Below, in pieces: positions 3,550-17,097 of a DNA stretch of 32,609 bases. Each line of letters starts with the position of its first letter. Within the stretch, counting starts at the first letter, position 1. The notes under the pieces are model-generated. The model had not been told where the DNA came from. It did not search any database and worked only from the letters and a program-made list of their open reading frames with translations. The stretch covers positions 1 through 32,609 of the forward strand of contig JAAWHK010000024.1 of the NCBI GenBank assembly GCA_022795805.1, written 5' to 3'. This DNA comes from Hungatella sp. (GTDB lineage Bacteria > Bacillota > Clostridia > Lachnospirales > Lachnospiraceae). Position numbers and translations under genes: made by a program.

Positions 3550-4704
3550 TTATCTGTACTGCTTGAGAAGGGCACGTCCCGCGATGTGGATCATGATCTC
3601 GTCGGTTCCGCCTCCGATTCTCTGCACTCTGGAATCCAGCCACAGCCGTGAGATGCGGCAGTCCGTGGTGTATCCGATTCCGCCCATGATCTGAAGCGCG
3701 TCATCGATAATCTCGCACGCGGAGCGGCCGCAGTACAGCTTGGTCAGAGCCGAATCCACCTGCACGGACTCCTTGTTCTCGATCTTCCACGCGGTGCGGT
3801 AAACCATGTTCCGCATGTTCTCGATCTTCATCTTCATCAGCGTGATCTTCTCCTGGATCAGCTGTCTGTCGGCCAGAGGCTTTCCGAAGGTAACTCTCTG
3901 ATTGGCGTACCGGGCCGCATCCTCAAAGGCGCACTCCGCGTATCCCAGAAGCTCCGCGCCGATCAGAAGGCGCTCCACCTCAAAGTTCACCATGGCCTGC
4001 ATAAAGCCGTTGCCCTCCACGCCTACCAGATCCTTCTCCTCCAGCTCCACATCCTCCATGTACACCTCGCAGGTGTCCATAAAGTGCCAGCCTATCTTCT
4101 TCAGAGGCTCAATCTTCACTCCCGGGGCATCCATGGGCATCCACCACATGGAGAAGGCGCTCTTCTTGTTGGCCGCTCCGTCCTCCTCCTCGGCGTTCTT
4201 GGCCAGACACAGCATGTATTTGGCTCTCTTCGCGTTGCTCATAAAGGTCTTGTGGCCGTTGATATACACTTTTCCGTTCTTTCTGGTGTAGGTGGTGGCG
4301 ATGGCGCTGCTGTCCGAACCGGCCTGAGGCTCCGTGAAGCCCAGAACGAATCCCGGCTTGCCGGACTGAATCTGCTCCATGCACTGGCTGATCTGATCCG
4401 GGCTGCCGAACTCCAGCATATCGGCGATGGACAGCGCCTGGCCGAACACGGAGTGAGGGCCGCCGTGCTTGGTGATCTCCTCGGCCACCAGCATCATGGT
4501 GGTGATGTCCACAGGTGTTCCGCCGTACTCCTCAGGCACGCCCAGAAGCCCGAATCCGCTCTCCATCAGGGCGTCCACAAATTCCTGGGGATAACGCCCC
4601 TCCTCGTTGCACCGCTTCATGTACTCTTCCGTACAGTCCCTCTCAATCACCTCGTCCAGGGATTCCAACAAAAGTTCCTGCTCCTCTGTCAACCGAAAGT
4701 CCAT
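3550..4704 (-). CDS. CaiA-like acyl-CoA dehydrogenase/reductase
   Basis: This 384-residue acyl-CoA dehydrogenase has the full three-domain fold. By memory it aligns well with E. coli CaiA (crotonobetainyl-CoA reductase). Both begin MDF-x-L-x3-EQEL, both share CAFEDAARYANQRV-xFG, and both end in GRA-x-LKQYR. FAD-loop residues (GFTEPQAGSD) and DALQIMGGIGYT are present. At the position of the catalytic Glu376 of medium-chain dehydrogenase (usually YEGT) there is Gly365 (RIGGGTDE), and E. coli CaiA also has Gly there. I chose the second ATG (4704): AGGAG lies 7 nt before it but only 1 nt before the ATG at 4710. The likely role is reducing an alpha,beta-unsaturated acyl-CoA with electrons from FixABCX. 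The exact substrate is unknown. Confidence 0.92.
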   Translation of the reverse strand: MDFRLTEEQELLLESLDEVIERDCTEEYMKRCNEEGRYPQEFVDALMESGFGLLGVPEEYGGTPVDITTMMLVAEEITKHGGPHSVFGQALSIADMLEFGSPDQISQCMEQIQSGKPGFVLGFTEPQAGSDSSAIATTYTRKNGKVYINGHKTFMSNAKRAKYMLCLAKNAEEEDGAANKKSAFSMWWMPMDAPGVKIEPLKKIGWHFMDTCEVYMEDVELEEKDLVGVEGNGFMQAMVNFEVERLLIGAELLGYAECAFEDAARYANQRVTFGKPLADRQLIQEKITLMKMKIENMRNMVYRTAWKIENKESVQVDSALTKLYCGRSACEIIDDALQIMGGIGYTTDCRISRLWLDSRVQRIGGGTDEIMIHIAGRALLKQYR

Positions 4705-4719
4705 AATCATTCTCCTTTT

Positions 4720-6342
4720 TTACTCTTCTTCCACGCACGCCGGCGTTACTCCCACGGGAGTAAGCCCCTTTGCGGCGCGTTTCTCGTTTCTCAGTTTCAG
4801 CCGGTAGCGCTCCGCCACACGGCTTTTTCTTATTTTCCCCGCGTCGTCCATATCGAACCGGTCAATAAAGTCCAGATACCGGGGTTTTTTGTAGCTGGAA
4901 ATATAGTTTTTGCAGTGGTCCTGCAGCTCCTGCAGCGTCACCGTCTTTCCCGGACGCAGGGAGACCACGGCCATAACCGCCTCGCCCATGGTCCGCTCCG
5001 GCACCCCGAAAACAATACACTCCTGAACGGACGGGTGGCGCTTGATCACGCCCTCCACCTCCTGTGCAAACACGTTCTCTCCGCCGGACTTGATCATATC
5101 CTTCTTCCTGGACATGAGATACAGATACCCGTCCTCATCCTTCCACATCATGTCGCCTGTGCGGAGCCATCCGCCGTCCTCAAAGACCCTGGCCGTAAGC
5201 TCCGGCTGCCTGTAGTAGCCCTTCATCACCGCCGGACTCTTCACCAGACACTCTCCCACCTGGCCCGGCGGCAGTTCTCTGCCGTCCTCGTCCACCACCC
5301 TGGCCTCCAGAAACGGCATAGGCCGCCCCACGCTCTTAATTCTGGGGAGATTCTCTGCCGCCATCTGTCTGGTCATGACCATGCTGGTGCCCAGGCCGCT
5401 CTCTGTCTGCCCCCACCCGTAGTTCATGACGCAGTTGGGAAAGGCGCCGTAGATTTTCTCGACGATCTCCGGCGTGGTGCACCCGGCGGCGCTCTGTACC
5501 AGCTTCACGGAAGACAGATCGAAGCGTTCAACACCGGGACAGTCCAGCAGCCTGAGATAGGTGCTGGGCGGAAGCAGCATCAGGTAGGTCACCCGCTCCC
5601 CCTCTATGAGCCTCAGAATGGTCTCCGGATCAAACACGTCACAGATCACCAGAGTGGCTCCGCTGGCAAACACGGACATATACCAGCTGTGGCCCCCATG
5701 ATGCTCCAGAGGACACTGGACCAGCACCACATGGTCCGGATCCGCGCCCATCATGTTGGAGTTCATCACCCCTATGGTCTCGCAGATATCGGCGCTGTGG
5801 GTCCTCATGGCCCCCTTTGGAAGGCCGGTGCTGCCACCGGTAAACTGGATGCGGGACAGCGCCTCCCCGTCCGGCTCCAGAGCAGGCTCCAGATCGGAAC
5901 ACGCCTCTAAGCGATCCCCTATGGACGTTCCCCACTCCTTCGTCTCCCGTGAGCAGAGGAAGGCGACCCGCCCCCAAAGAGCCGGGGCGATCTCCCTCAC
6001 ATGACCCAGAAACTGCCCGTCAAACAGCAGTAGGGAAGCGTCGCTGGCCTCCAGAAGATACTGAATCTCCCTGGAAACCAGCCGGAAATTCAGGGGTACA
6101 ATCACCGCCCCAATCTTCTGCACGGCGTAGTAAATCTCCAGAAGCATGATCCCGTTGGGGAACATGGAGGCCACCTTATCCCCCGGCCTGACTCCCATCT
6201 CCAAAAGCATATGGGCCATCCGGTTGATCCGGCCGTTGAATTCTTTGTAGGTCAGGCGGATATCCCCGTGTACCACCGCCGCCTTCCCGGGATACCGGCG
6301 CACGTTCACCATCAGCAGCTGGCTTACATTCTCATAAAACAT
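4720..6342 (-). CDS. Acyl-CoA synthetase (ANL superfamily, CaiC-like role)
   Basis: This 540-residue AMP-forming acyl-CoA ligase has all core motifs in order: the phosphate loop TGGSTGLPKG (168-177), GWGQTESG (309-316), GWLRTGD (391-397), KSGGENV (418-424) and the C-terminal lysine motif AGKIRK with Lys503. It should adenylate a carboxylic acid and join it to CoA, starting the pathway from free acid and ATP. The ATG at 6342 follows GGGGAGAAG. It is placed directly after the crotonase gene (15-nt gap) and before the dehydrogenase. A ligase together with two CoA-transferases suggests priming by ATP followed by CoA recycling between substrate and product, as proposed for CaiC and CaiB. Substrate specificity cannot be read from the sequence. 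Confidence 0.93.
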   Translation of the reverse strand: MFYENVSQLLMVNVRRYPGKAAVVHGDIRLTYKEFNGRINRMAHMLLEMGVRPGDKVASMFPNGIMLLEIYYAVQKIGAVIVPLNFRLVSREIQYLLEASDASLLLFDGQFLGHVREIAPALWGRVAFLCSRETKEWGTSIGDRLEACSDLEPALEPDGEALSRIQFTGGSTGLPKGAMRTHSADICETIGVMNSNMMGADPDHVVLVQCPLEHHGGHSWYMSVFASGATLVICDVFDPETILRLIEGERVTYLMLLPPSTYLRLLDCPGVERFDLSSVKLVQSAAGCTTPEIVEKIYGAFPNCVMNYGWGQTESGLGTSMVMTRQMAAENLPRIKSVGRPMPFLEARVVDEDGRELPPGQVGECLVKSPAVMKGYYRQPELTARVFEDGGWLRTGDMMWKDEDGYLYLMSRKKDMIKSGGENVFAQEVEGVIKRHPSVQECIVFGVPERTMGEAVMAVVSLRPGKTVTLQELQDHCKNYISSYKKPRYLDFIDRFDMDDAGKIRKSRVAERYRLKLRNEKRAAKGLTPVGVTPACVEEE

Positions 6343-6357: not shown

Positions 6358-7122
6358 TTATTTTTTGGAAAATCTGGCTGCCATCTCTTTATATTCCCGA
6401 GTTCTGGTACAGAACGGAGATGCTGTGGACTCCGCCTCCATAACGGCGTTGAGCATGGGATCCGCGGCGCCGTTCATGATGCCCTTGACAATGCTGACAG
6501 AGTTGGCCGATATGGCAGACAGCCCTGCTGCGTACTCCAGAGCCTTCTCCTCCAGCTCCTCCCTGGACACCACCTGGTTGACGATGCCCATGTCGCAGCC
6601 TTCCTTCGCCCCGAACCGCCTGCCGAAGAACAGAATATCCTTTGCCCTCTGAGGCCCCACCAGCTGGGGAAGCATGGCCATAATCCCCATCTCCGGTATG
6701 ATGCCGATGGCACAGAAATTGGGGATAAAGACGGTCTTTTCCGAAGCAATCACCAGGTCACAGGCCAGCACCAGGCTTACCGCGCCGCCTACCACATACC
6801 CGTCGGTCACCGCGATCACCGGCCTGCCGATCTGCCGGATGGTCCTGACGGCGGCCACATACCGTTTCAGCAGATTCCGGCTGTCCTCAATGGTCATATC
6901 GGGACCGCCCTGGCTCAAATCTCCTCCCGTGGAAAAGTTCTCCCCGGCCCCCCGAAGAAGGATGACCCTGACATCCTTATCCCGGTCAAGCTCCGTCAGA
7001 AATCCGCTCAGCTTGTCCATCATCACCGCGCTGATGGCATTCTTCTTCCTGGGCTGATTCAGATAGATGACGGCGATGCCGTTATCCTTTCTCTCCAGAT
7101 ACACTACATCTTTTTCTTCCAT
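6358..7122 (-). CDS. Enoyl-CoA hydratase/isomerase family protein (crotonase fold, CaiD-like)
   Basis: This 254-residue crotonase-fold protein has the oxyanion-hole segments GAGENFSTGGDL (58-69) and YVVGGAVSLVLACDL (109-123). Family members act on acyl-CoA thioesters by hydration, dehydration or isomerisation. Of the two glutamates used by classical hydratase (rat Glu144 and Glu164), the first position is Asn135 (IPNFCAIG instead of PE) and the second is Asp162. It is therefore not a textbook hydratase and may catalyse another crotonase reaction such as isomerisation or elimination. The ATG at 7122 follows GGAAGGG. It is separated from the upstream reductase gene by a 77-nt gap holding a strong hairpin. 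It fills the CaiD position of a cai-like set. Confidence 0.88.
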   Translation of the reverse strand: MEEKDVVYLERKDNGIAVIYLNQPRKKNAISAVMMDKLSGFLTELDRDKDVRVILLRGAGENFSTGGDLSQGGPDMTIEDSRNLLKRYVAAVRTIRQIGRPVIAVTDGYVVGGAVSLVLACDLVIASEKTVFIPNFCAIGIIPEMGIMAMLPQLVGPQRAKDILFFGRRFGAKEGCDMGIVNQVVSREELEEKALEYAAGLSAISANSVSIVKGIMNGAADPMLNAVMEAESTASPFCTRTREYKEMAARFSKK

Positions 7123-7199: not shown

Positions 7200-9281
7200 T
7201 CACAGATTTCTGGCCGCCAGATACCCTGCCTTGGTGGCATCCGCCATCCTGGCCGGATTAACGCAGTCTCCCACAACGGCGATCTCCTCCACCATTCCCT
7301 TTAACGAATTGGCCAGAGCCAGGTTCTTCTTGAATCCCAGTGTAACCGCCACCGTGTTGGCCGGCACAAAGAACTCGGTGCCGTCCTGGCGCACGGCCTT
7401 CACGCCCTTACCGGTGATCTCCGTTACCTTCGTCAAAGGCTCCAGCGTACAGTCCTCAGACTCCTTGAAGGCCGACGTAACGTGGAACCGGTCGCTTCCG
7501 CCCACGTCCCAGCCCACCTTCTTGCGCTCCTCGAAGATGGTCATTTTCCTCTTGTACTTTAAGAGGAGGGTTCCCAATTCGCATCCCGGAAGTCCGCCGC
7601 CGATGATGGCCACGTTCTTCCCGATGGGCCACGGGCTGACACCTGTCACCAGCCTGGCAAATGCCGGCGTGTAGTAGAATTTCAGGAAAATGGATCCGCA
7701 GGTCCACATTACCTTGTTGATAAGCCCCGGTTTTTTTGGCGCTTTCCCGTTGAGCATCTCCAAAAAGTCGTGGGACAGAACCACGTTCTTCCCGTCGGCT
7801 CCCGGCACGTCCAGCCCCACGGGCTCACCGCCTATGGCCACGATAACCGCATCCGGCCTCTCCCTGGCCACCAGTCTCTTGGTCACTTTGGTGTTCAGCT
7901 TCACCTTGATCTGCGGATGCTTCTTCAATTCGTGCTTATAGTGTACCAGGAGCCTCTCGTAGGTGGGGCTGAAGATGGAGCTCATAACCAGACAGCCTCC
8001 CACCCTCGGTCCTCTCTCGTACACGGTCACCTGATGGCCCTGTTCGCAGGCAGTCACCGCCGCGGACAGTCCCCCCGGGCCGCTTCCGATAACCATGACA
8101 CGCTTGCGGTCCTTGGTCTTCTCAAACCTGGGCCTGTCCAGCTCCTTGCCCAGCCGCGGGTTCACGCCGCAGTACTCCAGCACCTTTCCAGAGCTGACCA
8201 CGTCGTCCAGACAGCGGCAGCAGCAGATACACTTGTTTAAATCCTCCAGCCGGTCCTCCATCACCTTGTTGCCGAACTCCGGATCCGCGATGTTGTACCT
8301 GAGGCCCGCGATGATATCCGCCTTCTTCTCCTGGAGAATCTGCTCCATCACCAGGGGATCGGTGTTCCGGTAGGCGCAGGCCACCGGCTTCTTGGCCACG
8401 GTCTTGATCTTCTCGGACACCCAGGACCAGTAGCCGTCGGGAACGGTCTTGATGGTCAGCGGAATGCTGCTCTCGTGCCATCCGATGGCCAGATTGTGCA
8501 GGTCAACGCCTGCCTCCTCCAGAAGAGGCGCCACTTTCAGCGCGTTCTCGATGTCATTGCCCTCCCCCAGCTCCGAGCTTACGTACTCCACAGGGGACCA
8601 GCGGCAGGTGATAAGGTAGTCGGGGCCTACTTCGGCTCTCACCGCCCGGATCACCTCCAGGACTAGGCGCATCCGGTTCTCGAAGGAGCCTCCGTACTCG
8701 TCGGTCCGGTTGTTGGTGGCAGGGGACATGAACCGGTTCATGACACCGCCCACGCCGGCCATGATCTCCACGCCGTCCCAGCCGGCTTTCTTGATATACC
8801 GGGCCGTCATCACGTAGTGGTTGATAAACATGTCAATGTGCCTCTTCTCCATGGGAGTGAAGGGAGGCATACCCTTTAAGATCACCTGGGGAGTCGGGCC
8901 CCAGGGCTTTTCGTGCTCCTCGTCGTCCGGCTTCCAGGCGTGAACCGTCCATGGCTGTCCCACCAGAAGGCTGCCGTGCTTATGTACCACCTGAGCCATC
9001 TTCCTAAGCCCAGGAAGATGGTCGTCACTGAACGCTCCCGGCAGCGGATGTACGTGGAGGGCCGACTCGTCGGCAAACTCCCTGTGGAACGGGGATACGG
9101 TCTGGCAGATCAGCGCCGTTCCCCCGGCGGCACGCTCCTCCAGATAGTTATAGAAACGCTGAGTCGGAACCTCATTTATCACGTAACCATAACCTGGCGA
9201 CATGGAAGTTGTCATCAGGTGGTTTTTCATAACTACATTTCCAACCTTGATCGGTGATGCAAGAATATTACATCTGCCCAT
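7200..9281 (-). CDS. FadH/BaiCD-type NADH:flavin oxidoreductase (FMN, 4Fe-4S, FAD)
   Basis: This 693-residue enzyme combines an Old Yellow Enzyme-type FMN barrel (about 1-345, with NRTDEYGGSFENRMR at 191-205), a cysteine cluster (Cys351, Cys354, Cys357, Cys371), an FAD Rossmann motif (VIGSGPGG, 397-404) and an NAD(P)-binding motif (IIGGGLPGCELG, 559-570). This is the layout of 2,4-dienoyl-CoA reductase (FadH), bile-acid BaiCD/BaiH and trimethylamine dehydrogenase. The C-x2-C-x2-C spacing is nearer the last. Compared with E. coli FadH, His252 is kept (GWHE, His269), but catalytic Tyr166 is replaced by Gly179 (IMAGVGGVMN). AAGGAGG precedes the ATG at 9281. It probably reduces an unsaturated acyl-CoA or carbonyl-conjugated intermediate. 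The missing Tyr implies a different proton donor or substrate. Confidence 0.92.
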   Translation of the reverse strand: MGRCNILASPIKVGNVVMKNHLMTTSMSPGYGYVINEVPTQRFYNYLEERAAGGTALICQTVSPFHREFADESALHVHPLPGAFSDDHLPGLRKMAQVVHKHGSLLVGQPWTVHAWKPDDEEHEKPWGPTPQVILKGMPPFTPMEKRHIDMFINHYVMTARYIKKAGWDGVEIMAGVGGVMNRFMSPATNNRTDEYGGSFENRMRLVLEVIRAVRAEVGPDYLITCRWSPVEYVSSELGEGNDIENALKVAPLLEEAGVDLHNLAIGWHESSIPLTIKTVPDGYWSWVSEKIKTVAKKPVACAYRNTDPLVMEQILQEKKADIIAGLRYNIADPEFGNKVMEDRLEDLNKCICCCRCLDDVVSSGKVLEYCGVNPRLGKELDRPRFEKTKDRKRVMVIGSGPGGLSAAVTACEQGHQVTVYERGPRVGGCLVMSSIFSPTYERLLVHYKHELKKHPQIKVKLNTKVTKRLVARERPDAVIVAIGGEPVGLDVPGADGKNVVLSHDFLEMLNGKAPKKPGLINKVMWTCGSIFLKFYYTPAFARLVTGVSPWPIGKNVAIIGGGLPGCELGTLLLKYKRKMTIFEERKKVGWDVGGSDRFHVTSAFKESEDCTLEPLTKVTEITGKGVKAVRQDGTEFFVPANTVAVTLGFKKNLALANSLKGMVEEIAVVGDCVNPARMADATKAGYLAARNL

Positions 9282-9312: not shown

Positions 9313-10602
9313 TTACAGTGCACGGATTGCTTTCCAGAAATCTTCCGCAATGTGGAGCACGCCAACCCGGTTGGCCGCCCGCATGGCCATCTTCGCGATG
9401 CTCTCCGGCGGTCTTCCGTCCACCCTGAACAGATTGTCCATAATCTCGTCAATCATGGCCGGATATTCCCTGAACAGCCGTTTAATCTCCATAACCTGGG
9501 GGAATCTTCGGTAATGCTTCAGATCCCTCATGATGAAGTTTCTGTCCAGAGCCTTCTTGTAAATGGACAGGCTCTCCGCGGAGAAATCACCTTTCTTCCT
9601 GGCCCGCAGCACGGTCTCCGCCGCCAGCCGCCCGGACTCGATGGCAAAATCCATGCCTCTCACCATGAATCCCAGGTTCATCACAAAGCCGGCCGCGTCT
9701 CCTGTCACCAGGACGCCGTCTCCGACCAGCTCCGGCACCATTCGGTATCCCGCCTCCGGCACCAGGTGGGCGGAGTACTCCACAAGCTTTCCTCCGGCCA
9801 GGAGAGGCTTCACCACGGGATGCTCTTTCAGACGGTCAACCATCTCAACTACCGTCAGGCCGGAACCCTCGATATCGCTCACGGTGGCCACCACGCCTAC
9901 GGACACGCTGTCTTTGTTGGTGTACAGAAATCCGCCGCCGATGCTTCCCCCGGTGCAGTCGCCGTCAAACAGCCATCCTGTCCCCTCGTCGTCCGTCACC
10001 CCGAACCGATCGGAAACCGTCTTTGTGTCCAGCTTGATAACCTCTTTGGCGCCCACCGCCACCTGTGAGGGAAGAAGTTCTTTTTTCATCCCCAGCTTCT
10101 GAGCCAGCAGAGAATTCACTCCGTCAGCCAGAATCACCACATCCGCAAAGGCCTCCTCATCCCCGGATTTTACACCGACGACCTTTCCCCCTTTCACCAC
10201 CAGGTCGTCCACACGGACTCCGGTGATGATCATGGCGCCGGCCTTCTCCGCCTCGTCTGCCATCCACTTGTCAAACTTGCTGCGCAGCACCGTGTAGGAA
10301 GCGCAGGCAGGCAGGCCCAGCTTCTTGCTGGTGTAGTCCACGGTCATGGCGCCCCTGCGCGTGGTCATGGAAACCCTCTCCCTGGTAATCTTGCGCTCAA
10401 TGGGTGCTTTCTCTGCAAAGCCGGGCATCAGTTTCTCCAGGCTGTGCCCATAGAGACGTCCGCCGGTCATATTCTTGGACCCGCAGGTCTGCCCCCGCTC
10501 GATCAGACAGACATCAAGACCCGCTTTGGCCAGGCGATATGCCGCAGCAGTGCCGGCCAGACCGCCGCCGACTACGATCACGTCAAATCTCTCTTCACTC
10601 AT
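9313..10602 (-). CDS. fixC: FixC-like flavoprotein dehydrogenase, full length (copy 2)
   Basis: This 429-residue FixC family flavoprotein has the Rossmann motif VGGGLAG (11-17), CGSKNMTGGRLY, LADGVNSLLAQKLGMK, GDAAGFVMNLGFMVRGMD and the complete helical C-terminal tail. An in-frame ATG exists at 10737, but I chose 10602 (MSEERFDVIVV). It aligns with other FixC starts, has AGGTAGAAGGA just upstream, and the predicted sigma-54 start site (about 10636) lies after the longer start. It is the first gene of the long minus-strand operon, about 6.6 kb away from its paralog, fixX and etfBA. It may serve the FadH-like reductase next to it, or be the main FixC of the complex (inference). Confidence 0.93.
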   Translation of the reverse strand: MSEERFDVIVVGGGLAGTAAAYRLAKAGLDVCLIERGQTCGSKNMTGGRLYGHSLEKLMPGFAEKAPIERKITRERVSMTTRRGAMTVDYTSKKLGLPACASYTVLRSKFDKWMADEAEKAGAMIITGVRVDDLVVKGGKVVGVKSGDEEAFADVVILADGVNSLLAQKLGMKKELLPSQVAVGAKEVIKLDTKTVSDRFGVTDDEGTGWLFDGDCTGGSIGGGFLYTNKDSVSVGVVATVSDIEGSGLTVVEMVDRLKEHPVVKPLLAGGKLVEYSAHLVPEAGYRMVPELVGDGVLVTGDAAGFVMNLGFMVRGMDFAIESGRLAAETVLRARKKGDFSAESLSIYKKALDRNFIMRDLKHYRRFPQVMEIKRLFREYPAMIDEIMDNLFRVDGRPPESIAKMAMRAANRVGVLHIAEDFWKAIRAL

Positions 10603-10645
10603 TCCTTCTACCTTTTCCTTTCTCAAAATTTCTATTCCTTTCATT

Positions 10646-10661
10646 TGCAAATTTCGTGCCA
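10646..10661 (-). promoter_or_regulatory. Sigma-54 promoter of the fixC2...etfA operon
   Basis: On the minus strand the sequence reads TGGCACG-AAAT-TTGCA, with GG and GC exactly 10 nt apart. This is the textbook -24/-12 element of RpoN. The expected start is near 10636, about 34 nt before the fixC2 ATG. It is one of five such elements in the locus. Confidence 0.88.
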
Positions 10662-10720
10662 TACTCCTGTGTTTTTCCTGAAATTTTGGCCCGCTATATT
10701 TTTTCTCCATATCGGCAATC

Positions 10721-10736
10721 CGGCATATTTTTTGCA
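10721..10736 (+). promoter_or_regulatory. Sigma-54 promoter of the first CoA-transferase gene
   Basis: The sequence CGGCATATTTTTTGCA has GG (10722-10723) and GC (10734-10735) separated by exactly 10 nt. The expected start is near 10747, giving an unusually long leader of about 143 nt before the ATG at 10890. A TATAAT at 10740-10745 has no matching -35 element, so I prefer the RpoN reading. Confidence 0.78.
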
Positions 10737-10823
10737 TAATATAATGATAATTGGCCCTGGGGCAGAAGTTCTGGTCTGTTTCCTTTTCCCCGTGTCATTG
10801 CCTGATTACCTTTTCCACGGGGA

Positions 10824-10841
10824 GACAGGGAACAAACTGTC
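10824..10841. promoter_or_regulatory. Inverted repeat in the caiB-like leader, possible activator site
   Basis: GACAG-N8-CTGTC lies about 190 bp upstream of the predicted start of the divergent fixC2 operon and inside the leader of the CoA-transferase transcript. The position suits an upstream activating sequence for an RpoN enhancer-binding protein. The arms are only 5 bp, so this is weak. Confidence 0.3.
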
Positions 10842-10889
10842 CTTTTGTCCCACGGCAAATAATATGAAACCAAAAGGAGAAATACAGTT

Positions 10890-12107
10890 ATGAAACGTAG
10901 CGACATGCCGAAATTCGGAAACCTTCAGAACCTGAAGGTTCTCAACGCAGCATCCGTGGTGGCCGGCCCCTTCCTGTGCCAGCTTTTCGCCGAGCAGGGC
11001 GCCGATGTCATCGAGCTGGAGAGCACCCGCGTGCCGGATATGTACCGGATGTACCAGGAGGCCTGGTCCGTGGAGCGCCGCAACCAGAGAATGACTTCTC
11101 TGAATATCCCCACGCCGGAGGGCAAAGAGATCCTTCTCACCATGTGCAAGTGGGCCGACATCCTGGTGGAGTCCTCCAAGGGAGGAACCTGGGAGAAATG
11201 GGGTGTTACGGACGAGGTGCTGTGGGAGGCCAACCCGGCTCTGGTAATCGTCCATATCTCCGGCTTCGGACAGTTCGGTGATCCTTCCTATATTAACCGC
11301 GGTTCCTTCGACAGCATCGGACAGGCCTTCAGCGGCTACATGAGCATCAACGGAATGCCGGATCCCAATCCGCCCTACGTGGCAAAACCGTTTATGGGCG
11401 ACTACATGACTGGCCTTATGGGCGCATGGGCGGCTCTGGCAGCCTACATCCGCGCCAAGGAGACGGGCATCGGCGACAGCATCGACTGTGCACAGTTCGA
11501 GGCACTGGCAAGAGTCCAGGGTTCCTACTTATCCAACGGCTTAAACAGAGGCGAGCAGCCGCCCCGTATGGGCAACCTTGACACCGTAGGCGCCTGCAAG
11601 GGAACTCAGCAGTGCAAGGACGGCTGGATCTTTATCGCCGTTGGCGGCAGCGGCCCAATCCGCAAGATGATCGAGTTCTTCGGCCTGGCCGGCGACCCGG
11701 ATTTCGACGGCATCATCCAGTCCATCACCAGGGACAAACCGGAGCGGGCAAGGAAGTTCAACGAGAAGCTGGAAGGCTACTGCGCCGGCCACACGGTGGA
11801 GGAAGTGTTTGAGGTTATGTCCTCCATGTCCGTTCCCTGCAGCCCCATCATGACCTACCAGACCATGCAGGAGAACTCCCACTACAAGGCGCGCAAGGTG
11901 TTCGAGGAGTGGCATGACGAGATCACCGACAAGCCGGTAAAGGGCGTTACCATGATTCCCCGGTTCAAGAAACATCCCGGTCAGCTGGTTCGCGGCGGGG
12001 CCAAGTACGGCGCCGACACGGAGGATATCATGGAAGAGTTCGGCTACACCAGGGAGCAGCTGGAAGCGTTCTATGAGAAAGGGATCATCAACCGTCCCAA
12101 AGAGTGA
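10890..12107 (+). CDS. CaiB/BaiF-type family III CoA-transferase (copy 1)
   Basis: This 405-residue family III CoA-transferase resembles E. coli CaiB in its start (MPKFGNLQNLKVL), in EVLWEANPALVIVHISGFGQ-xG, and in the catalytic region PFMGDYMTG, where Asp171 matches CaiB Asp169. The enzyme moves CoA between an acyl-CoA product and a free-acid substrate through an Asp-CoA thioester, saving ATP. AAAGGAG precedes the ATG at 10890. It is transcribed divergently from the main operon, from its own sigma-54 promoter, and is followed by two stacked terminator hairpins. Compared with copy 2 it is the more divergent from CaiB. Two transferases may serve two substrates or two product exits of the same pathway. 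Confidence 0.93.
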   Translation: MKRSDMPKFGNLQNLKVLNAASVVAGPFLCQLFAEQGADVIELESTRVPDMYRMYQEAWSVERRNQRMTSLNIPTPEGKEILLTMCKWADILVESSKGGTWEKWGVTDEVLWEANPALVIVHISGFGQFGDPSYINRGSFDSIGQAFSGYMSINGMPDPNPPYVAKPFMGDYMTGLMGAWAALAAYIRAKETGIGDSIDCAQFEALARVQGSYLSNGLNRGEQPPRMGNLDTVGACKGTQQCKDGWIFIAVGGSGPIRKMIEFFGLAGDPDFDGIIQSITRDKPERARKFNEKLEGYCAGHTVEEVFEVMSSMSVPCSPIMTYQTMQENSHYKARKVFEEWHDEITDKPVKGVTMIPRFKKHPGQLVRGGAKYGADTEDIMEEFGYTREQLEAFYEKGIINRPKE

Positions 12108-12114
12108 TTACATA

Positions 12115-12138
12115 AGCCCCCTGTCTGGCAGGGGGCTT
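12115..12138 (+). terminator. Terminator hairpin after the first CoA-transferase
   Basis: AGCCCCCTG and CAGGGGGCT form a 9-bp stem with a 5-nt loop just after the stop, followed by a short TTTG. The T-run is short, so it probably works together with the next hairpin. Confidence 0.65.
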
Positions 12139-12152
12139 TGCCGCAAAACAAT

Positions 12153-12193
12153 GGCGGTCAGACAGCGAATACTCTGTCTGACCGCCACTTTTT
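12153..12193. terminator. Strong terminator between convergent genes
   Basis: A perfect 13-bp stem (GGCGGTCAGACAG with CTGTCTGACCGCC, loop 12166-12173) is followed by a T-run on the + strand. It lies between the convergent CoA-transferase and MFS genes and may stop transcription from both sides. Confidence 0.85.
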
Positions 12194-12232
12194 ATACTGA
12201 ATATCTTATCTGGCTAAGGGAAGGCAAATCAG

Positions 12233-13495
12233 TTATGCTGCTTTGGAACCCTTGCTGCTGGCCTTTACTACCGGAAGCAGAACAGCCTGGATCAGGAGCA
12301 GAACGATAACCATACCGATACATCCTGCGTAGGAGCCGGTGCGGTCATAAATCTGTGCGTAAATCATCGGTGACAGACCTGCAGCCACCATAACCGTGGT
12401 CGTTACCAGGGAGTAGATGTTGGAGTAATCCTTTGTGCCGAAAGCTTCTCTCGTGATCATGGGGTTGCCGATGGTCAGCGGAACAAAGCTCAAGGAGAAG
12501 AGGCCTACGCCCAGGTAGAAGATTCCGGTGCTGGTGCCGCCGGTGAGAAGGATGGCTGCCAGTCCGCCTGCCGCCAGAAGACAGCAGATGATGTTGGTTG
12601 TGATGCTGCCGATCTTATCGCACAGCCAGCCCACGATAGGCCCGCGGGGAAGTCCGGCGATGGACAGGATGGAAAGTGCCATAGCACCCGCTGCCGCCCC
12701 GATGGGAACCGTGGCGCTGTAGCTGGGAAGCTGCTGGTTAAGGCTTGGGCACAGGCAGGAAATAAACGCAACTACAAGTACCATGTAGAAAGCCGGAGTC
12801 TTAACGGCCTGGCTGCGGGTAAGTCCCTCTGCCGCGGCTGCGGGAGCCGCGGCCTTGGTATCCTTCTCTGCCGGAGCGTCGTCCGCACCGTAAGGCTTTG
12901 CACCCATCTTCTCCGGGAAGCTTCTTACAAACAGCACGCACAGGATCAGACATCCGATTACCGTAATCAGACCCACACGGAAGCGGGCAGCCTGCCAGCC
13001 GATGCTGGTGATCATCTTCTGAATCTGGGGATTCACGAAGTATCCGGTCACGCCTGTGATACAGCCCACAACAGAAAGTGCGAAAGCCGTTTTCTTCTTA
13101 AACCACCGGTTGATCAGAATCGGCTGAGGCAGATACATGAAGAAGCCTGCCGCAACGCCGTAGAGCACACCGAACAGATTCCACTGCCACAGCTGTGTAA
13201 AAGTGCTGCTCCAAAGATAGGCCGCTCCGAACATAACGATGATGCCGGACATGATCCAGCGGATATCGTACTTCTCATAGATCTTGCCGATAACCGGCTG
13301 AAGAGCCGCCGCGATCCAGGAATAGATGGTCAGATACAGGGATGCCTGCGTTCTGGACCATCCGAACTCCTCCATAACCGGAGTAAGAAACATGCCTGCG
13401 GTGTTACAGAGAATGGTAATCAGCATGGCACTGCAGCCCACACATCCCAGGACGATGAGCCAGGGATTAAAATTAGATTCTTTTTGTGTTCCCAT
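12233..13495 (-). CDS. MFS transporter, OFA (oxalate/formate antiporter)-like
   Basis: This 420-residue integral membrane protein has about 12 hydrophobic segments in two halves joined by a charged Ala/Lys-rich loop (around residues 195-220, with DDAPAEKDTKAA). The N-terminal region (NTAGMFLTPVMEEFGWSRTQ) and LPQPILINRWFKKK resemble the monocarboxylate/OFA branch of MFS carriers, which move small organic anions. I chose the ATG at 13495 because AAAGGAG sits just before it; the upstream in-frame ATG at 13555 has no such site. It has its own sigma-54 promoter at 13577-13592. The likely role is import of the acid used by the locus, or exchange of substrate and product. No CaiT-type carrier is present. 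Confidence 0.88.
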   Translation of the reverse strand: MGTQKESNFNPWLIVLGCVGCSAMLITILCNTAGMFLTPVMEEFGWSRTQASLYLTIYSWIAAALQPVIGKIYEKYDIRWIMSGIIVMFGAAYLWSSTFTQLWQWNLFGVLYGVAAGFFMYLPQPILINRWFKKKTAFALSVVGCITGVTGYFVNPQIQKMITSIGWQAARFRVGLITVIGCLILCVLFVRSFPEKMGAKPYGADDAPAEKDTKAAAPAAAAEGLTRSQAVKTPAFYMVLVVAFISCLCPSLNQQLPSYSATVPIGAAAGAMALSILSIAGLPRGPIVGWLCDKIGSITTNIICCLLAAGGLAAILLTGGTSTGIFYLGVGLFSLSFVPLTIGNPMITREAFGTKDYSNIYSLVTTTVMVAAGLSPMIYAQIYDRTGSYAGCIGMVIVLLLIQAVLLPVVKASSKGSKAA

Positions 13496-13576
13496 AAATT
13501 CTCTCCTTTTTTCGTTAGAATTCTGATTTTGCTTCCATCTTAGCCGTTTCAGCAACAGACAGCCGTCTATTATTTA

Positions 13577-13592
13577 TGCAAATTTAATACCA
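13577..13592 (-). promoter_or_regulatory. Sigma-54 promoter of the MFS transporter gene
   Basis: The minus strand reads TGGTATT-AAAT-TTGCA(T), with GG-N10-GC spacing. It deviates slightly from TGGCAC at the -24 part. The predicted start is near 13566, giving a leader of about 70 nt. Confidence 0.75.
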
Positions 13593-13716
13593 GATTACAA
13601 TTTTTTAAAAATTTTCTTACTTTTTTTATTTTTACCGCTGTCTTCGTGAATTTCCATCCATCTTTTTTAATAATTTCTCTTTTGCTGTCTTTTTACTTTT
13701 ATACAATTTCAACATT

Positions 13717-13730
13717 TTGTACCTGTACAA
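13717..13730. promoter_or_regulatory. Palindrome TTGTAC-CT-GTACAA, possible enhancer site
   Basis: This perfect 6-bp inverted repeat has a 2-nt centre and lies about 155 bp upstream of the predicted MFS start site. The distance is typical for an upstream activating sequence of a sigma-54 enhancer-binding protein. No second exact copy was found in the other promoter regions, so assignment is tentative. Confidence 0.4.
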
Positions 13731-13801
13731 AGTGTCACAGGTATCATTTTGTCACTTTTTTAACGTATTCTTTATATCACCCATACCCCCGAAGAGGAGG
13801 A

Positions 13802-15043
13802 TTACTCCGTGGTCTCAAAGTACTCCCTCTTTCCCAGTTTTCCCTCCCGGTACATTTTCTCTGCGGTCTCTTTACCGAATCCCAGCTCCTCCAGAATATC
13901 CTCGTTGTCCATCCCGATGCTGGGAGCGCCTCTCCACACCCGGCCCGGATAGTTCGCAAGTTTCGGCATTACATTGACGCCGGGAATGTCCGTCACGCCG
14001 TCGGCCGCCTTCCAGGCAGTAAACACCTCCCTTGCCACGTACTGAGGGTTGGTCCTGGCGGACTCATAGTCCATCAGCCGGGAACAGGGAACCCCCGCGT
14101 CCACGAAAGCTCTCTCCGCCTCCTCGGCCGTGTGGCTGGCCGTGAAATCCGCCATGGCCTTCTCCACCTTGGCAGCCGCGGGCGTGTCCACGGGAATCAG
14201 GGTACTTCCGTCGGGGAAGTCTTCGCTTCCGTATTCCAGCCCCAGCACCGAAAGTCCCCTGGCCACCGCCCCGGCACCGAGAAACAGCACGTAGATCTCC
14301 ATGCCGTCCCTGCACTCATAGGTGCCGTAACAGGCACAGATGCGGCTGTGGTTTCCTTCCTTTATATAGTCCAGGCCGTATCTTAAGTAATCCGTGGGAT
14401 AGTTGGCCTGCATTCTTATCATCAGCTCATACTGGGCAATGTCAATACTCTCCCCTTTCCCCGTCTCCTTCGCTTTTAAAAGCGCTGCCAGGGACATGCC
14501 GAAACCGTAGTAGGAAGCGGCGAAATCGCCCGGAAACGGCATGGCGGGAGCCGACGGCTGCCCAGGAAGCCCGTTCATCCGCATGACGCACCCAAATGCC
14601 TGGGCAATGGGATCGTAGCTGGCCCTCTTTATGTAGTCCGGGTCTCCGGTCTGGCCGAAACCGGATATGTGAACGATGACCAGCCTGGGGTTTTTCTCCC
14701 ACAAAACCTGATCCGACAGCCCCAGCTTCTCGTACCTTCCCCCCACGGAGGCCTCGATGAGCACATCCGCGGTCTCCAGAAGTTTCAGGAATACCTCCCG
14801 TCCCTCATCCTTCCTGTAATCCATGGCCAGGCTTCTCATATTTCTCCGGTCCTGCTGCCAGGAACCGCTTCTCCTGGCCACCCTGCAGGAATCCACCACC
14901 TTAGGATGCTCCACCCAGATCACGTCTGCGCCGTGCTCCGCGTAGAGCTCCCCCGCAAAGGGAGCCGCCACCGAAGCCCCCATCATCACCACCCTGTAGC
15001 CGCTCAGCAGCCCAAATTTCGGAATATCCGCGCTTTTTGCCAT
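13802..15043 (-). CDS. CaiB-type family III CoA-transferase (copy 2)
   Basis: This 413-residue family III CoA-transferase is closer to E. coli CaiB than copy 1. It has the start IPKFGLLSGYRVV, DEGREVFLKLLETADVLIEAS, VLWEKNPRLVIVHISGFGQ, GKGESIDIAQYE-x-MIRM and NPQYVAREVFTAW. The catalytic aspartate is Asp173 in FPGDFAASYYG. I chose the ATG at 15043, which has GGGAG 5 nt upstream, over the in-frame ATG at 15064, which has no site. It is divergent from the permease-SDR pair, with two back-to-back sigma-54 promoters in the 153-bp gap. It likely exchanges CoA between the pathway's acids. Its strong CaiB likeness is a main reason to call the locus cai-like. Confidence 0.94.
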   Translation of the reverse strand: MAKSADIPKFGLLSGYRVVMMGASVAAPFAGELYAEHGADVIWVEHPKVVDSCRVARRSGSWQQDRRNMRSLAMDYRKDEGREVFLKLLETADVLIEASVGGRYEKLGLSDQVLWEKNPRLVIVHISGFGQTGDPDYIKRASYDPIAQAFGCVMRMNGLPGQPSAPAMPFPGDFAASYYGFGMSLAALLKAKETGKGESIDIAQYELMIRMQANYPTDYLRYGLDYIKEGNHSRICACYGTYECRDGMEIYVLFLGAGAVARGLSVLGLEYGSEDFPDGSTLIPVDTPAAAKVEKAMADFTASHTAEEAERAFVDAGVPCSRLMDYESARTNPQYVAREVFTAWKAADGVTDIPGVNVMPKLANYPGRVWRGAPSIGMDNEDILEELGFGKETAEKMYREGKLGKREYFETTE

Positions 15044-15094
15044 ATTACTCCCGCCTTTCTTCACAGCATTGCTGTATTTTTACCATAAAATTAT

Positions 15095-15110
15095 TGCAAA
15101 AACCATGCCA
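15095..15110 (-). promoter_or_regulatory. Sigma-54 promoter of the second CoA-transferase gene
   Basis: The minus strand reads TGGCATG-GTTT-TTGCA with exact GG-N10-GC spacing. The predicted start is near 15084, about 41 nt before the ATG at 15043. Confidence 0.88.
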
Positions 15111-15143
15111 TATGTATTTTTAACACGAAACAATATGGTTTTC

Positions 15144-15159
15144 AGGCATGTTTTTTGCA
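15144..15159 (+). promoter_or_regulatory. Sigma-54 promoter of the permease-SDR operon
   Basis: The sequence AGGCATG-TTTT-TTGCA has GG (15145-15146) and GC (15157-15158) 10 nt apart. The predicted start is near 15170, 27 nt before the ATG. With the opposite promoter it forms a 20-nt inverted repeat (15090-15109 with 15145-15164, 19 of 20 matching). Confidence 0.85.
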
Positions 15160-15196
15160 ATAATATCTTAAAAACATTTTACAAAAGGAGATCTTC

Positions 15197-16330
15197 ATGG
15201 AAAAAAAGCAATCGTCATTCTTTGTGGCATTCCCTGTTTCTTCCGTGTATTTTGGCGCCCTGGTGGGCCCGTCCATGGTTTCCGGGGCCTTTGCCGCCGT
15301 GTACTTTGCTCCCTATGGGGCCTGGGGCCTTATCCTGCCTCTGGTAACCATGGGCCTGGCCGCTTTCATCGTGACCTGCGGAATGATCGGTATCCGCCGC
15401 TGGAAGGTGTATGACTACTCGTCCTACGCCAGGAAGCTGTACGGCCCCCTGTCCCCTGTCCTTTCGCCTCTTCTGGAGGTATTCCTGATACTGGCCATGA
15501 TCGTAGGCGGAAGTTCCGTCATCGCCATGGGCGGCACGTTCTTCAACAGCCTTTTCGGCATGCCCGTGTTCATAGGCGCCGTTCTCATGGCTGTCATCAG
15601 CTCCCTTCTGGTGCTGTGGGGCGCAGACCTGGTGCGAAAGTCCTCCACCTTCATGACCGTGGTCCTGGCGGCAGGATTCTTTCTTTTGGTGGTATTCGCC
15701 GCCGGCACCAAGTCGGAGCGGCTTTCCGCCATCATCACCAGCTGGGAGGTTCCCCATGGGGTCCGCTTTCTCACCGGTGTGGCGCCCGCTCTCTCACTGG
15801 GGCTCTCCCACGCCAGCAACGCCCTCACCCTGAGCAGCGTCAGCCAGAACATCCGCACCTTCAGGGACGCGTGCATGGTGGGTCTCATCAGCTTTGTGTT
15901 AAACAGCGCGGCCTTTATCGCCTGCACCGTTCTGATTCTGCCCTACTGCCCGGAGGCCCTGGCTGAAAGTGTACCCAACCTGTACATCATCAACACCTTC
16001 CTGGTGGAAAAGGTCCCCTGGCTTCCCGTGGTCTACTCCGTAGTCATGTTCTTCGGGCTGGCCTCCAGCGGCGCACCTCAGCTCCACGCCGTCGCCTCCC
16101 GGGTTCTCCCCCTGTATCCCGATTCATGGAGGGTCACGGACCTTACGAAAAATATTATTACCAGCTTTGTGTACATGGCCGTCTGCATCGCCATCTCGTT
16201 TTTGGGGCTCAGGACCATCATCAGTTCCGGCTACGGACTTTTGGGAAGCCTGGCCGTTCCCCTTATCGTGATCCCGCTGTGCGTCGTCATGCCTGTACGC
16301 CTCTACAGAGAAAGGAGTCTGAAAAAATGA
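15197..16330 (+). CDS. YkvI-like membrane transporter
   Basis: This 377-residue protein has about ten hydrophobic segments and almost no soluble part. It resembles the YkvI family of the amino-acid/sodium-symporter superfamily, including an early Gly/Ser-rich break in the first helix (GALVGPSMVSGAF). AAAAGGAGATC precedes the ATG at 15197. The stop codon overlaps the SDR start (ATGA), so the two are translationally coupled. It lies under a sigma-54 promoter facing the second CoA-transferase. It is a candidate importer for a zwitterionic or amino-acid-like substrate, taking the place CaiT has in the carnitine system; this is inference. Substrates of the family are poorly known. Confidence 0.75.
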   Translation: MEKKQSSFFVAFPVSSVYFGALVGPSMVSGAFAAVYFAPYGAWGLILPLVTMGLAAFIVTCGMIGIRRWKVYDYSSYARKLYGPLSPVLSPLLEVFLILAMIVGGSSVIAMGGTFFNSLFGMPVFIGAVLMAVISSLLVLWGADLVRKSSTFMTVVLAAGFFLLVVFAAGTKSERLSAIITSWEVPHGVRFLTGVAPALSLGLSHASNALTLSSVSQNIRTFRDACMVGLISFVLNSAAFIACTVLILPYCPEALAESVPNLYIINTFLVEKVPWLPVVYSVVMFFGLASSGAPQLHAVASRVLPLYPDSWRVTDLTKNIITSFVYMAVCIAISFLGLRTIISSGYGLLGSLAVPLIVIPLCVVMPVRLYRERSLKK

Positions 16331-17097
16331 CCAATTATTTCGATCTGACCGGACAGGTGGCGGTCGTCACCGGCGCCAGCGCCGGTTTGGGCGCCCAGTT
16401 TGCCAGGATTCTGGCCGAAAGCGGCGCGGACGTGGCCGTCCTGGCCCGCCGCACCGAGATGCTCAAATCTCTGGCCCAGGAGATTACCCGTGACACTGGA
16501 CGGCGCTGCCTTTACTACACCTGCGACGTAGGGCAGGAGGATTCCATCCGGGAGGCTGTGGACGCCATTCTCGCTGATTTCACCAAAATTGACATTCTGG
16601 TGAACAATGCCGGAATCGTCAAGTATTCCAGGGATTTCCCCTCCCACACAACGGAGAAGTGGAATATGGTTCTGGGGGTGGACTTAACGGGAGCCTTCCT
16701 CTTCAGCCGCTACACCGCCGAAAAATCCATGATTCCCAACGCCTACGGCCGGATCATCAATCTCACCAGCGTGGCGGCCATCCAGGGAGGCCTGGGCACT
16801 GCCAGCTACTCTGCCGCCAAGGGCGGCATCTTAAGCCTTACCAAGGCCATGGCCGCTGACCTGGCCTCCCACAACATCACCGTCAACGCCATCGGCCCCG
16901 GCAACGTGGAGTCGGAGATGAGCGCCAAAACCATGGACAACCCCTTTGTGAAGGAGATGATCGCCAAGACGCCCATGAAGCGCTTCGGGAAGGCCCGGGA
17001 GTTAAGCGCCATCCTTCTGGCCTTTGCCAGCCCTGTTTCGTCCTATACCACGGGACAGGTGGTTTATGTGGACGGGGGGATGACTTCGGTGCTGTAG
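16327..17097 (+). CDS. SDR-family oxidoreductase
   Basis: This 256-residue classical short-chain dehydrogenase has TGASAGLG (15-22), NNAG (93-96), catalytic Ser148, Tyr161 and Lys165 (YSAAK), and the C-terminal GQVVYVDGGM. Arg41-Arg42 after the second strand suggest NADP(H) rather than NAD(H). The start is the ATG overlapping the permease stop by 4 nt, preceded by AAAGGAG; longer upstream frames overlap the permease gene. It probably oxidises a hydroxy group or reduces a keto group of the pathway substrate or intermediate, for example a 3-hydroxy/3-oxo pair. It is the last gene of the sigma-54 locus on this side and is followed by a terminator. Confidence 0.9.
   Translation: MTNYFDLTGQVAVVTGASAGLGAQFARILAESGADVAVLARRTEMLKSLAQEITRDTGRRCLYYTCDVGQEDSIREAVDAILADFTKIDILVNNAGIVKYSRDFPSHTTEKWNMVLGVDLTGAFLFSRYTAEKSMIPNAYGRIINLTSVAAIQGGLGTASYSAAKGGILSLTKAMAADLASHNITVNAIGPGNVESEMSAKTMDNPFVKEMIAKTPMKRFGKARELSAILLAFASPVSSYTTGQVVYVDGGMTSVL

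What the first reader, a model, noticed from the sequence alone, without database searches (positions are those of the whole stretch)
10646..15159. Five sigma-54 promoters control every transcription unit of the acyl-CoA locus
Elements with GG-N10-GC spacing and TGGCAYG-N4-TTGCA-like sequence are found at 10646-10661 (-), 10721-10736 (+), 13577-13592 (-), 15095-15110 (-) and 15144-15159 (+). Each lies before the first gene of a unit: fixC2 operon, CoA-transferase 1, MFS carrier, CoA-transferase 2, permease-SDR. Sigma-54 with an enhancer-binding protein is known to control Stickland-type catabolism in Clostridia (for example PrdR and proline reductase). A substrate-sensing activator, probably encoded just outside the window, would make this a dedicated inducible pathway. 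No sigma-54 element was seen in front of the opp, GntR or URO-D genes.
Basis: partly seen in the sequence, partly recalled or inferred. Interest (0 to 1): 0.82.

Follow-up and report, generated by a model that had tools for sequence, protein, structure and literature searches.

The report
Gene cluster with its own sigma-54 switch
A gut bacterium related to Hungatella appears to control one acyl-CoA metabolism gene cluster with a sigma-54 factor and activator encoded beside the cluster, so a regulator best known as genome-wide seems here to serve mainly one pathway.

Summary
The five sigma-54 (-24/-12) elements are real. All lie intergenically before the five transcription units, with predicted leaders of 27-143 nt. 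Shuffles of the three intergenic stretches reached five hits in 0 of 2000. In a sister species, G005, 94 of 96 site positions (the five sites plus a sixth) are identical, against 498 of 708 in surrounding intergenic DNA. A pattern fitted to the sites matches six places in the 2.55-Mb assembly, all in this locus, with no reversed-control match. The assembly shows no rpoN, which looked like refutation. It is best explained by a gap: G005's contig is collinear with the window and with contig C25, and the 2.5 kb between holds the end of etfA, a complete rpoN and the start of a GAFTGA activator. C25 begins inside that activator, followed by a sixth sigma-54 site before etfB2-etfA2. Best reading: a self-contained sigma-54 cassette (sigma factor, one activator, about six promoters) dedicated to one Cai/Ydi/Fix-like acyl-CoA pathway. 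rpoN is patchy in the genus. The Stickland/PrdR analogy is not supported. New variant of a known kind; substrate and transcription untested.

The parts
10646..10661 (-). sigma-54 promoter P1 (TGGCACGAAATTTGCA) of the fixC2...etfBA operon; predicted start ~10635, 33-nt leader
   Evidence: 15 of 16 positions identical in G005
10721..10736 (+). sigma-54 promoter P2 (CGGCATATTTTTTGCA) of CoA-transferase 1; predicted start ~10747, 143-nt leader
   Evidence: 15 of 16 positions identical in G005
13577..13592 (-). sigma-54 promoter P3 (TGGTATTAAATTTGCA) of the MFS carrier; weakest by matrix
   Evidence: 16 of 16 identical in G005
15095..15110 (-). sigma-54 promoter P4 (TGGCATGGTTTTTGCA) of CoA-transferase 2
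   Evidence: identical in G005
15144..15159 (+). sigma-54 promoter P5 (AGGCATGTTTTTTGCA) of permease-SDR
   Evidence: identical in G005
13716..13749 (.). candidate activator-binding sites upstream of P3: palindrome TTTGTACCTGTACAAA (13716-13731) and a related site (13732-13749)
   Evidence: block 13712-13754 identical at 41 of 43 positions in G005; no match with under 5 mismatches at the other promoters in the stretches scanned; only match in the window at up to 3 mismatches
1..461 (-). etfA, N-terminal 153 codons, cut by the contig end
   Evidence: collinear with G005 C90, where etfA is followed by rpoN
485..1273 (-). etfB
   Evidence: Pfam ETF
1297..1575 (-). FixX-like ferredoxin
   Evidence: best NCBIfam hit FixX, below cut-off
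1596..2714 (-). FixC-like FAD oxidoreductase
   Evidence: NF007450 and FixC models below cut-off
2740..3522 (-). TIGR03084 family metal-binding protein
   Evidence: over cut-off
3550..4710 (-). acyl-CoA dehydrogenase of the NF008997 (PRK12341) model
   Evidence: 651.2 bits, cut-off 537; the name YdiO for this model is recalled
4720..6342 (-). acyl-CoA ligase
   Evidence: AMP-binding
6358..7122 (-). enoyl-CoA hydratase family
   Evidence: ECH_1
7200..9281 (-). old-yellow-enzyme/2-enoate reductase-like flavoenzyme
   Evidence: 96% (best segment) to the Hungatella sp. record
9313..10602 (-). fixC2, FixC/YdiS-like FAD oxidoreductase; start placed at 10602, since the longer ORF contains P1
   Evidence: NF007450 545.3 bits, cut-off 466
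10890..12107 (+). CoA-transferase 1 (family III, CaiB-like)
12233..13495 (-). MFS carrier
13802..15043 (-). CoA-transferase 2 (family III, CaiB-like)
15197..16330 (+). membrane permease (my reading) with no Pfam or NCBIfam match at E<=0.001
16327..17097 (+). short-chain dehydrogenase

Best explanation
The locus is a self-contained sigma-54 cassette. rpoN and one AAA+/Fis-type activator are encoded directly after etfA as a coupled pair whose stop and start codons overlap. In the sister species they have a strong sigma-70-like promoter of their own, so the switch can be made in advance. When the activator binds its ligand, probably the pathway substrate or its CoA ester, it remodels sigma-54 polymerase waiting at five promoters in the window and a sixth before etfB2-etfA2, turning on two CoA-transferases, carriers, ligase, dehydrogenase, hydratase, flavoenzymes and two ETF systems together. 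Shown: the sites, their conservation, the gene order in G005, the truncated activator in the own assembly. Inferred: rpoN in the own genome (gap), promoter activity, ligand, exclusivity.
For: Sites. Conservation with G005: 94 of 96 site positions (six sites) against 498 of 708 other intergenic positions. Concentration: GGCAYRNNNNTTGCW matches 7 places in the own 2.55 Mb, 5 in this locus; the 2 others lie inside ORFs. The fitted pattern GGYAYDNWWTTTGCW matches 6 places, all in the locus, control 0. rpoN and activator: G005 C90 carries etfA - rpoN (AID, CBD, DBD; RRTVAKYR box) - activator (GAFTGA, HTH_8) - sigma-54 site - etfB2-etfA2. C67:1-19195 and C25 from base 100 align collinearly on either side of a 2.5-kb gap holding rpoN. 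One activator match at E<=1e-30 in each of G000 and G005. Natural control: the consensus exceeds its reversed control in the nine genus genomes with an rpoN match (125 vs 50) but not in 16 without (96 vs 116) (counts, rpoN, test). TTGACA-N16-TAAAAT with TG before rpoN.
Against: No rpoN letters exist in the window's own assembly, and the first 99 bases of C25 do not match G005, so the junction is inferred. Both genomes are incomplete (78% and 73%), so a second rpoN or more activators could be missing. A candidate activator-binding site was found at only one of the promoters. GAF is over its Pfam cut-off only in the C25 copy and PAS is below cut-off there; neither is reported for the G005 copy at E<=0.001, so ligand sensing is inferred. 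In G005 nine of 14 matches to the first pattern are off the locus: three are copies of one repeat, one stands before coaD, one 109 nt before another ORF, four lie in ORFs of 80 or more aa. One rpoN-positive genome (G024) shows no excess (7 vs 11). No transcript data.
Confidence: 0.85

Rival explanations
1. The five elements are sigma-54 promoters, but they are served by a general, genome-wide RpoN that the incomplete assembly lacks; the cluster-side rpoN is redundant or absent in this species.
For: Own genome 78% complete; rpoN differs widely in place and lineage across the genus and family, and one genus member (G003) has two rpoN matches.
Against: Collinear contigs on both sides of a gap of the right size; G005 has one rpoN match and one strong activator match; off-locus sites in the own assembly are two intragenic matches for one pattern and none for the other.
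Confidence: 0.1
2. The elements are repeated operator sites of another DNA-binding regulator, for instance the GntR-type protein at 26728-27393, and not promoters.
Against: Sites are oriented with transcription, with leaders of 27-143 nt, keep GG-N10-GC, and resemble -24/-12 rather than a palindrome; rpoN and an activator are linked in G005; in the genus the pattern is enriched, summed over genomes, only where rpoN is found.
Confidence: 0.04
3. Chance AT-rich resemblance in intergenic DNA.
For: Whole-window shuffles give about 4 hits at score 11 or more.
Against: 0 of 2000 intergenic shuffles reach five; site conservation far above surroundings; 6 of 6 matches of the fitted pattern at one locus.
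Confidence: 0.01

Closest known systems
Firmicutes rpoN linked to mannose PTS, with LevR/CelR-like activators (Lactobacillus plantarum, Pediococcus; passages of PMC3162934)
   Same: Sigma factor gene linked directly to a target operon; a likely example with a LevR-like activator is L161 (my reading).
   Different: There the pathway is PTS sugar uptake; here it is CoA-ester redox chemistry, with an AAA+/Fis-type activator and no PTS gene among the proteins scanned.
Clostridial activator regulons of butyrate/acyl-CoA operons (CrbR, XcgR, YctR: crt/caiB/bcd/etfAB; PMC6615313)
   Same: Sigma-54 and a dedicated activator are predicted to control acyl-CoA/ETF operons in Clostridia.
   Different: That study reports a single sigL in each of 57 genomes; in the sections read it does not describe rpoN encoded within the target cluster. 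In C. beijerinckii 26 operons are assigned to sigma-54; here essentially one locus.
Escherichia coli cai-fix and ydi operons (recalled)
   Same: Family III CoA-transferases, PRK12341-type dehydrogenase, ligase, hydratase, EtfAB, FixC, FixX.
   Different: Regulation in E. coli is not by a linked rpoN (recalled); no CaiT seen; carnitine-specific models not reached; adds an OYE-like flavoenzyme, TIGR03084 protein, SDR and a permease without a family.
PrdR-proline reductase system of Clostridioides/Clostridium
   Same: GAFTGA activator; NCBIfam PrdR is the best model hit (AAA+ and C-terminal part).
   Different: 359.8 bits against a cut-off of 795; no proline reductase family among the ten cluster proteins scanned.

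Membership tests
sigma-54 (-24/-12) promoter | GG at -24 and GC at -12 with 10 bases between (16-bp element) | tested here: met
   5 of 5 in the window, sixth on C25
sigma-54 (-24/-12) promoter | placed before a unit, in its direction, and conserved between species | tested here: met
   leaders 27-143 nt; 94 of 96 positions identical over six sites
sigma-54 (-24/-12) promoter | transcription starts 11-13 nt after GC and needs RpoN | not testable with these tools
   no expression data
sigma-54 factor (RpoN) | AID, core-binding and DNA-binding domains and RpoN box in the locus-linked gene | tested here: met
   G005 L014:12798-14219: PF00309, PF04963, PF04552; TIGR02395 360.7 bits, cut-off 277.35; RRTVAKYR aligned to a solved sigma-54 chain
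sigma-54 factor (RpoN) | present in the window's own genome | tested here: inconclusive
   0 matches, but its syntenic place is an assembly gap
sigma-54 enhancer-binding protein | AAA+ with GAFTGA loop and Fis-type HTH | tested here: met
   own C25 copy is truncated at the N-terminus
sigma-54 enhancer-binding protein | N-terminal sensory domain | tested here: inconclusive
   GAF over cut-off (26 vs 22.4) and PAS below (20.1 vs 22.6) in the C25 copy; neither listed for the G005 copy
PrdR | NCBIfam NF041552 curated cut-off 795 bits | tested here: not met
   359.8 and 361.3 bits
cai (carnitine) operon | L-carnitine CoA-transferase and crotonobetainyl-CoA dehydrogenase models over cut-off | tested here: not met
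   363.1 and 386.5 vs 413; 416.9 vs 540
bai (bile acid) operon | BaiCD model over cut-off | tested here: not met
   305.3 vs 825
NF008997 (PRK12341; ydi-type) acyl-CoA dehydrogenase | NF008997 over cut-off | tested here: met
   651.2 vs 537

The most novel reading that the evidence does not exclude
Sigma-54 here is not a global regulator but a portable, pathway-private switch: a divergent rpoN, a single activator and nearly all of its promoters travel with one catabolic locus, and in this genus different rpoN lineages have been acquired separately with different loci.
Probability: 0.5. Interest if true: 0.65.

Novelty: new variant of a known kind. Interest (0 to 1): 0.52.

Why it matters
Sigma-54 is usually described as one chromosomal factor shared by many activators; PMC6615313 reports a single copy in each of 57 Clostridiales genomes. 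A locus carrying its own sigma-54, one activator and nearly all matching promoters would be a minimal natural sigma-54 circuit, useful for testing how sigma factors become pathway-private, how several divergent sigma-54s come to be in one genus, and as an inducible expression cassette. It also gives a handle on an uncharacterised gut acyl-CoA pathway: the activator's ligand should name the substrate.

Tried and rejected
Chance: rejected. Genome lacks rpoN: first result pointed that way; explained by synteny, not directly disproved. PrdR/Stickland: model cut-off not met. Carnitine (cai) and bile acid (bai) identity: cut-offs not met; substrate left open. A shared activator-binding site for all promoters: the palindrome upstream of the MFS promoter has no copy at the others with fewer than 5 mismatches in the stretches scanned. 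'rpoN always sits beside its activator in the family': rejected; 24 of 76 rpoN loci have an activator within 5 kb, 17 of 51 where 5 kb of flank exists on both sides. The 76 are all 65 places listed, ten places in nine other genomes of the genus, and one from another family of the order; the activator profile was built from three sequences, so distant LevR types may be missed. Wider distribution of the exact cluster: the OYE-like protein at E<=1e-150 was found only in the own genome among 397 family genomes, a sample that evidently did not include G005, and in one record of genome contigs (a scan that finds close relatives only and may leave out the own genome). The grouping of the G005 rpoN with L161 in the tree carries the program's own long-branch warning and is not used. 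A quinone link was only noticed.

Papers: searches with no hit were. Searches gave listings; only PMC6615313, PMC3162934 and PMC12316311 were opened. 'Not found in print' rests on the searches alone: no title or abstract start listed there describes rpoN inside an acyl-CoA cluster with its activator.

The pattern was fitted to the sites seen, so only its off-locus count is independent evidence; the pattern was also chosen after seeing the sites.

Full report
OBSERVATION. The best, TGGCACGAAATTTGCA at 10646-10661 (-), matches the -24/-12 consensus as I recall it; the weakest, TGGTATTAAATTTGCA at 13577-13592 (-), departs at two positions. A whole-window scan with a recalled matrix is only moderately enriched (11 hits at score >=11 against 4.2 in 15 dinucleotide shuffles; 4 at >=14, one of them intragenic, against 0.47). 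The decisive facts are placement and conservation. The only five intergenic hits at >=11 in the window are these five; the other six lie inside genes. In 2000 shuffles of the three intergenic stretches the mean was 0.04 hits, and none reached five. Taking the start 12 nt after the GC, leaders are 33, 143, 71, 41 and 27 nt, each with a purine-rich, Shine-Dalgarno-like stretch before ATG. The fixC2 start is placed at 10602, because the longer ORF listed contains its own promoter.

CONSERVATION. The window is a whole contig (C67, 32609 bases) of a 78.5%-complete assembly, G000. Same-genus genome G005 (73% complete) has a 42,407-base contig, C90, collinear with window 1-19195 at 84-89% identity in the four main blocks. 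A contig of the same length in the named collection, JAAWLV010000003.1, is titled 'MAG: Hungatella sp. isolate ABMPRH_202_3' and carries the OYE-like protein at 96%; I take it to be the same record. In alignments of the intergenic stretches the sites stand out as islands: over six sites (five here, one on C25) 94 of 96 positions are identical, against 498 of 708 in the rest of the intergenic DNA (Fisher p 1.6e-11). Both changes are at positions the consensus leaves free or allows.

GENOME-WIDE. The pattern GGCAYRNNNNTTGCW occurs 7 times in the own 2.55 Mb: four in the window, one at C25:1896, two elsewhere; those two lie inside ORFs. The fitted pattern GGYAYDNWWTTTGCW occurs 6 times, all in the locus (five in the window, one on C25), with no match to the reversed control; in G005 it occurs 8 times, six in the locus. 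Of the two others in G005, one lies inside a MATE-transporter-like ORF and one ends 56 nt before a predicted coaD start, giving a leader of about 46 nt ('coaD' is my reading of the protein). With the first pattern G005 has 14 matches, five in the locus and nine elsewhere. Of the nine, four lie within ORFs of 80 aa or more (one of them a short, doubtful ORF), one is the coaD site, three are near-identical copies of one repeat, and one lies 109 nt before a 477-aa ORF. So exclusivity is clean in the own assembly and nearly so in G005. Across the genus the first pattern exceeds its reversed control in the nine genomes with an rpoN match (125 vs 50) and not in 16 without one (96 vs 116); G000 was left out of both groups (Fisher p 1.6e-7; per-genome rank test p 0.0006, counts). 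One rpoN-positive genome, G024, runs the other way (7 vs 11). G004, counted as without, has a sub-threshold DNA-binding-domain match.

WHERE IS RPON? The own assembly has no match to the sigma-54 DNA-binding or core-binding domain. But in G005 the order after etfB-etfA is rpoN (L014:12798-14219), activator (L014:14219-16276), a sigma-54 site, etfB2, etfA2. rpoN has all three Pfam domains, passes TIGR02395 and aligns through the RpoN box with a solved sigma-54 chain. The rpoN stop and activator start overlap (TAATG). The window's left end lies in etfA and maps to C90:21957; contig C25 of the own assembly maps from its base 100 to C90:24476, with 74-84% identity in its five blocks. The missing 2.5 kb corresponds to the end of etfA, rpoN and the start of the activator. 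C25 encodes the rest of the activator, with GAFTGA, then TGGCATGATTTTTGCA at C25:1895-1910 and etfB2-etfA2. The first 99 bases of C25 do not match G005, perhaps a misassembled contig end. So rpoN in this species is a strong inference, not an observation. Five weaker matches to the activator domain in the own genome (E 1e-7, over the Pfam cut-off) also occur as a class in control genomes of all kinds at that level, and are taken as other AAA+ proteins; at E<=1e-30 only one remains.

HOW IT MOST LIKELY WORKS. The activator has the AAA+ sigma-54 domain, lid and Fis-type HTH in both species; the C25 copy also matches GAF over its cut-off and PAS below it, while the G005 copy shows neither at E<=0.001. 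No receiver domain was listed. A one-component, ligand-sensing activator is the natural reading (inference). In G005 the 0.3 kb between etfA and rpoN holds a TTGACA-N16-TAAAAT element with a preceding TG, 11 of 12 consensus positions (the scan found 7 promoter-like sites in 5 kb where shuffles give 3.5, but this is the best of them), so the sigma factor and activator could be made by the housekeeping polymerase and the rest switched on by ligand. Read-through from the fixC2 operon could add positive feedback (inference). Upstream of the MFS promoter a conserved block (41 of 43 positions, 13712-13754) holds the palindrome TTTGTACCTGTACAAA and a related site, about 125-155 bases beyond the -24 end, a fitting distance for activator binding. 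No copy was found at the other promoters, whose divergent pairs leave only 59 and 33 bases between their -24 ends; their activator sites, if any, must lie beyond the opposite promoter or in genes. This is the weakest point of the model.

WHAT IS CONTROLLED. Two family III CoA-transferases (closest to the L-carnitine CoA-transferase model but below cut-off), an NF008997/PRK12341 acyl-CoA dehydrogenase and a PRK10015-type FixC2 (both over cut-off), ligase, hydratase, OYE-like flavoenzyme, TIGR03084 protein, SDR, MFS carrier, a permease of no family, EtfAB, FixC-like and FixX-like proteins. This looks like the Cai/Ydi/Fix type of CoA-ester redox module; carnitine and bile-acid models are not reached. 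Nothing in these scans points to an amino-acid reductase, so 'Stickland-type' is not supported.

SIGMA-54 IN THE GENUS AND FAMILY. rpoN is patchy: 12 of 61 relatives (own included) over the Pfam cut-off, 9 of 26 genus genomes by protein, 61 of 397 family genomes at E<=1e-20. The G005 rpoN is at most 35% identical to any other found. In a quick tree of 75 rpoN proteins (no bootstrap; SH-aLRT only) the ten genus members need four changes of the label, all forced by supported branches. Several separate acquisitions are the simplest reading; several old copies with differential loss would fit too. Seven genus proteins form one clade; three of these (L015, L016, L018) lie near what I read as a cysteine-desulfidase-like gene with -24/-12 sites close by; a peptide of it also occurs in an L019 ORF, and not in L157, L158 or L159. 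Linkage of rpoN to an activator is common, not universal: 24 of 76 loci within 5 kb. L161 shows what I read as a mannose-PTS version: rpoN overlapping a LevR-like activator, with two TGGCACGATAATTGCA sites.

AGAINST WHAT IS KNOWN. PMC6615313 (abstract, sections 5 and 7, and term passages read) reconstructs clostridial sigma-54 regulons including acyl-CoA/ETF operons and reports one sigL per genome. PMC3162934 (term passages read) reports that Firmicutes sigma-54 genes associate with glycolysis genes and, in some lactobacilli, directly with mannose PTS. PMC12316311 (term passages read) reports multiple rpoN copies in about 5% of organisms. So the parts are known, and a sigma factor linked to its target is known in the PTS form; what differs here is the complete private cassette around an acyl-CoA locus. 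I call it a new variant of a known kind.

LIMITS. Two incomplete metagenome assemblies carry the argument; no expression data; substrate unknown; exclusivity is shown only at the stringency of two patterns.

Noticed in passing
L011:3655-6342 (own contig C25); G005 C90 from 28102: After etfB2-etfA2 in the own genome lie MenA-like (below cut-offs), MenG/UbiE (TIGR01934 over cut-off) and HepT-like (below cut-off) genes; the MenA-like protein matches in only 3 of 26 genus genomes and no MenD match in the own genome reaches the cut-off. Suggests a quinone made from a scavenged precursor and linked to the ETF/FixC system.
   Followed up: partly
L183:1501-1516 (G005 C154, minus strand): Near-perfect sigma-54 site TGGCACGTATTTTGCA ending 56 nt before a predicted coaD (CoA biosynthesis, my reading) start, off the main locus; no counterpart matched in the own assembly.
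   Followed up: partly
window 13712-13754: Conserved palindromic block upstream of the MFS promoter, candidate activator site.
   Followed up: partly
L015, L016, L018: A second sigma-54 locus type in the genus: rpoN near a cysteine-desulfidase-like ORF with -24/-12 sites; L015 and L018 also hold a ~700-aa activator, and aminotransferase-like and RidA-like ORFs; names are my reading.
   Followed up: partly
L157, L158, L159 (G003, G010, G006): RpoN-like ORFs of 387-426 aa whose DNA-binding-domain match stops at position 99-118 of 160, so the RpoN box may be missing; G010 and G006 also have no activator match at E<=1e-30. Possibly decaying or altered sigma-54.
   Followed up: no
G023: Two strong sigma-54 activator matches but no rpoN found, in an 88%-complete assembly.
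   Followed up: no
L011:1-99: The first 99 bases of own contig C25 do not match the sister species and read in frame as an unrelated peptide, by recall like a solute-binding protein; likely a chimeric contig end.
   Followed up: partly
G005 C5:199-213, C5:13731-13745, C180:19287-19301: Three near-identical repeat copies that happen to match the sigma-54 pattern; near contig ends, so a repeat that breaks the assembly.
   Followed up: partly
window 30480-32545 (-): Two overlapping same-strand ORFs in different frames (30480-31982 and 31961-32545) that may be one gene broken by a frameshift; the longer one carries short repeated peptides.
   Followed up: no
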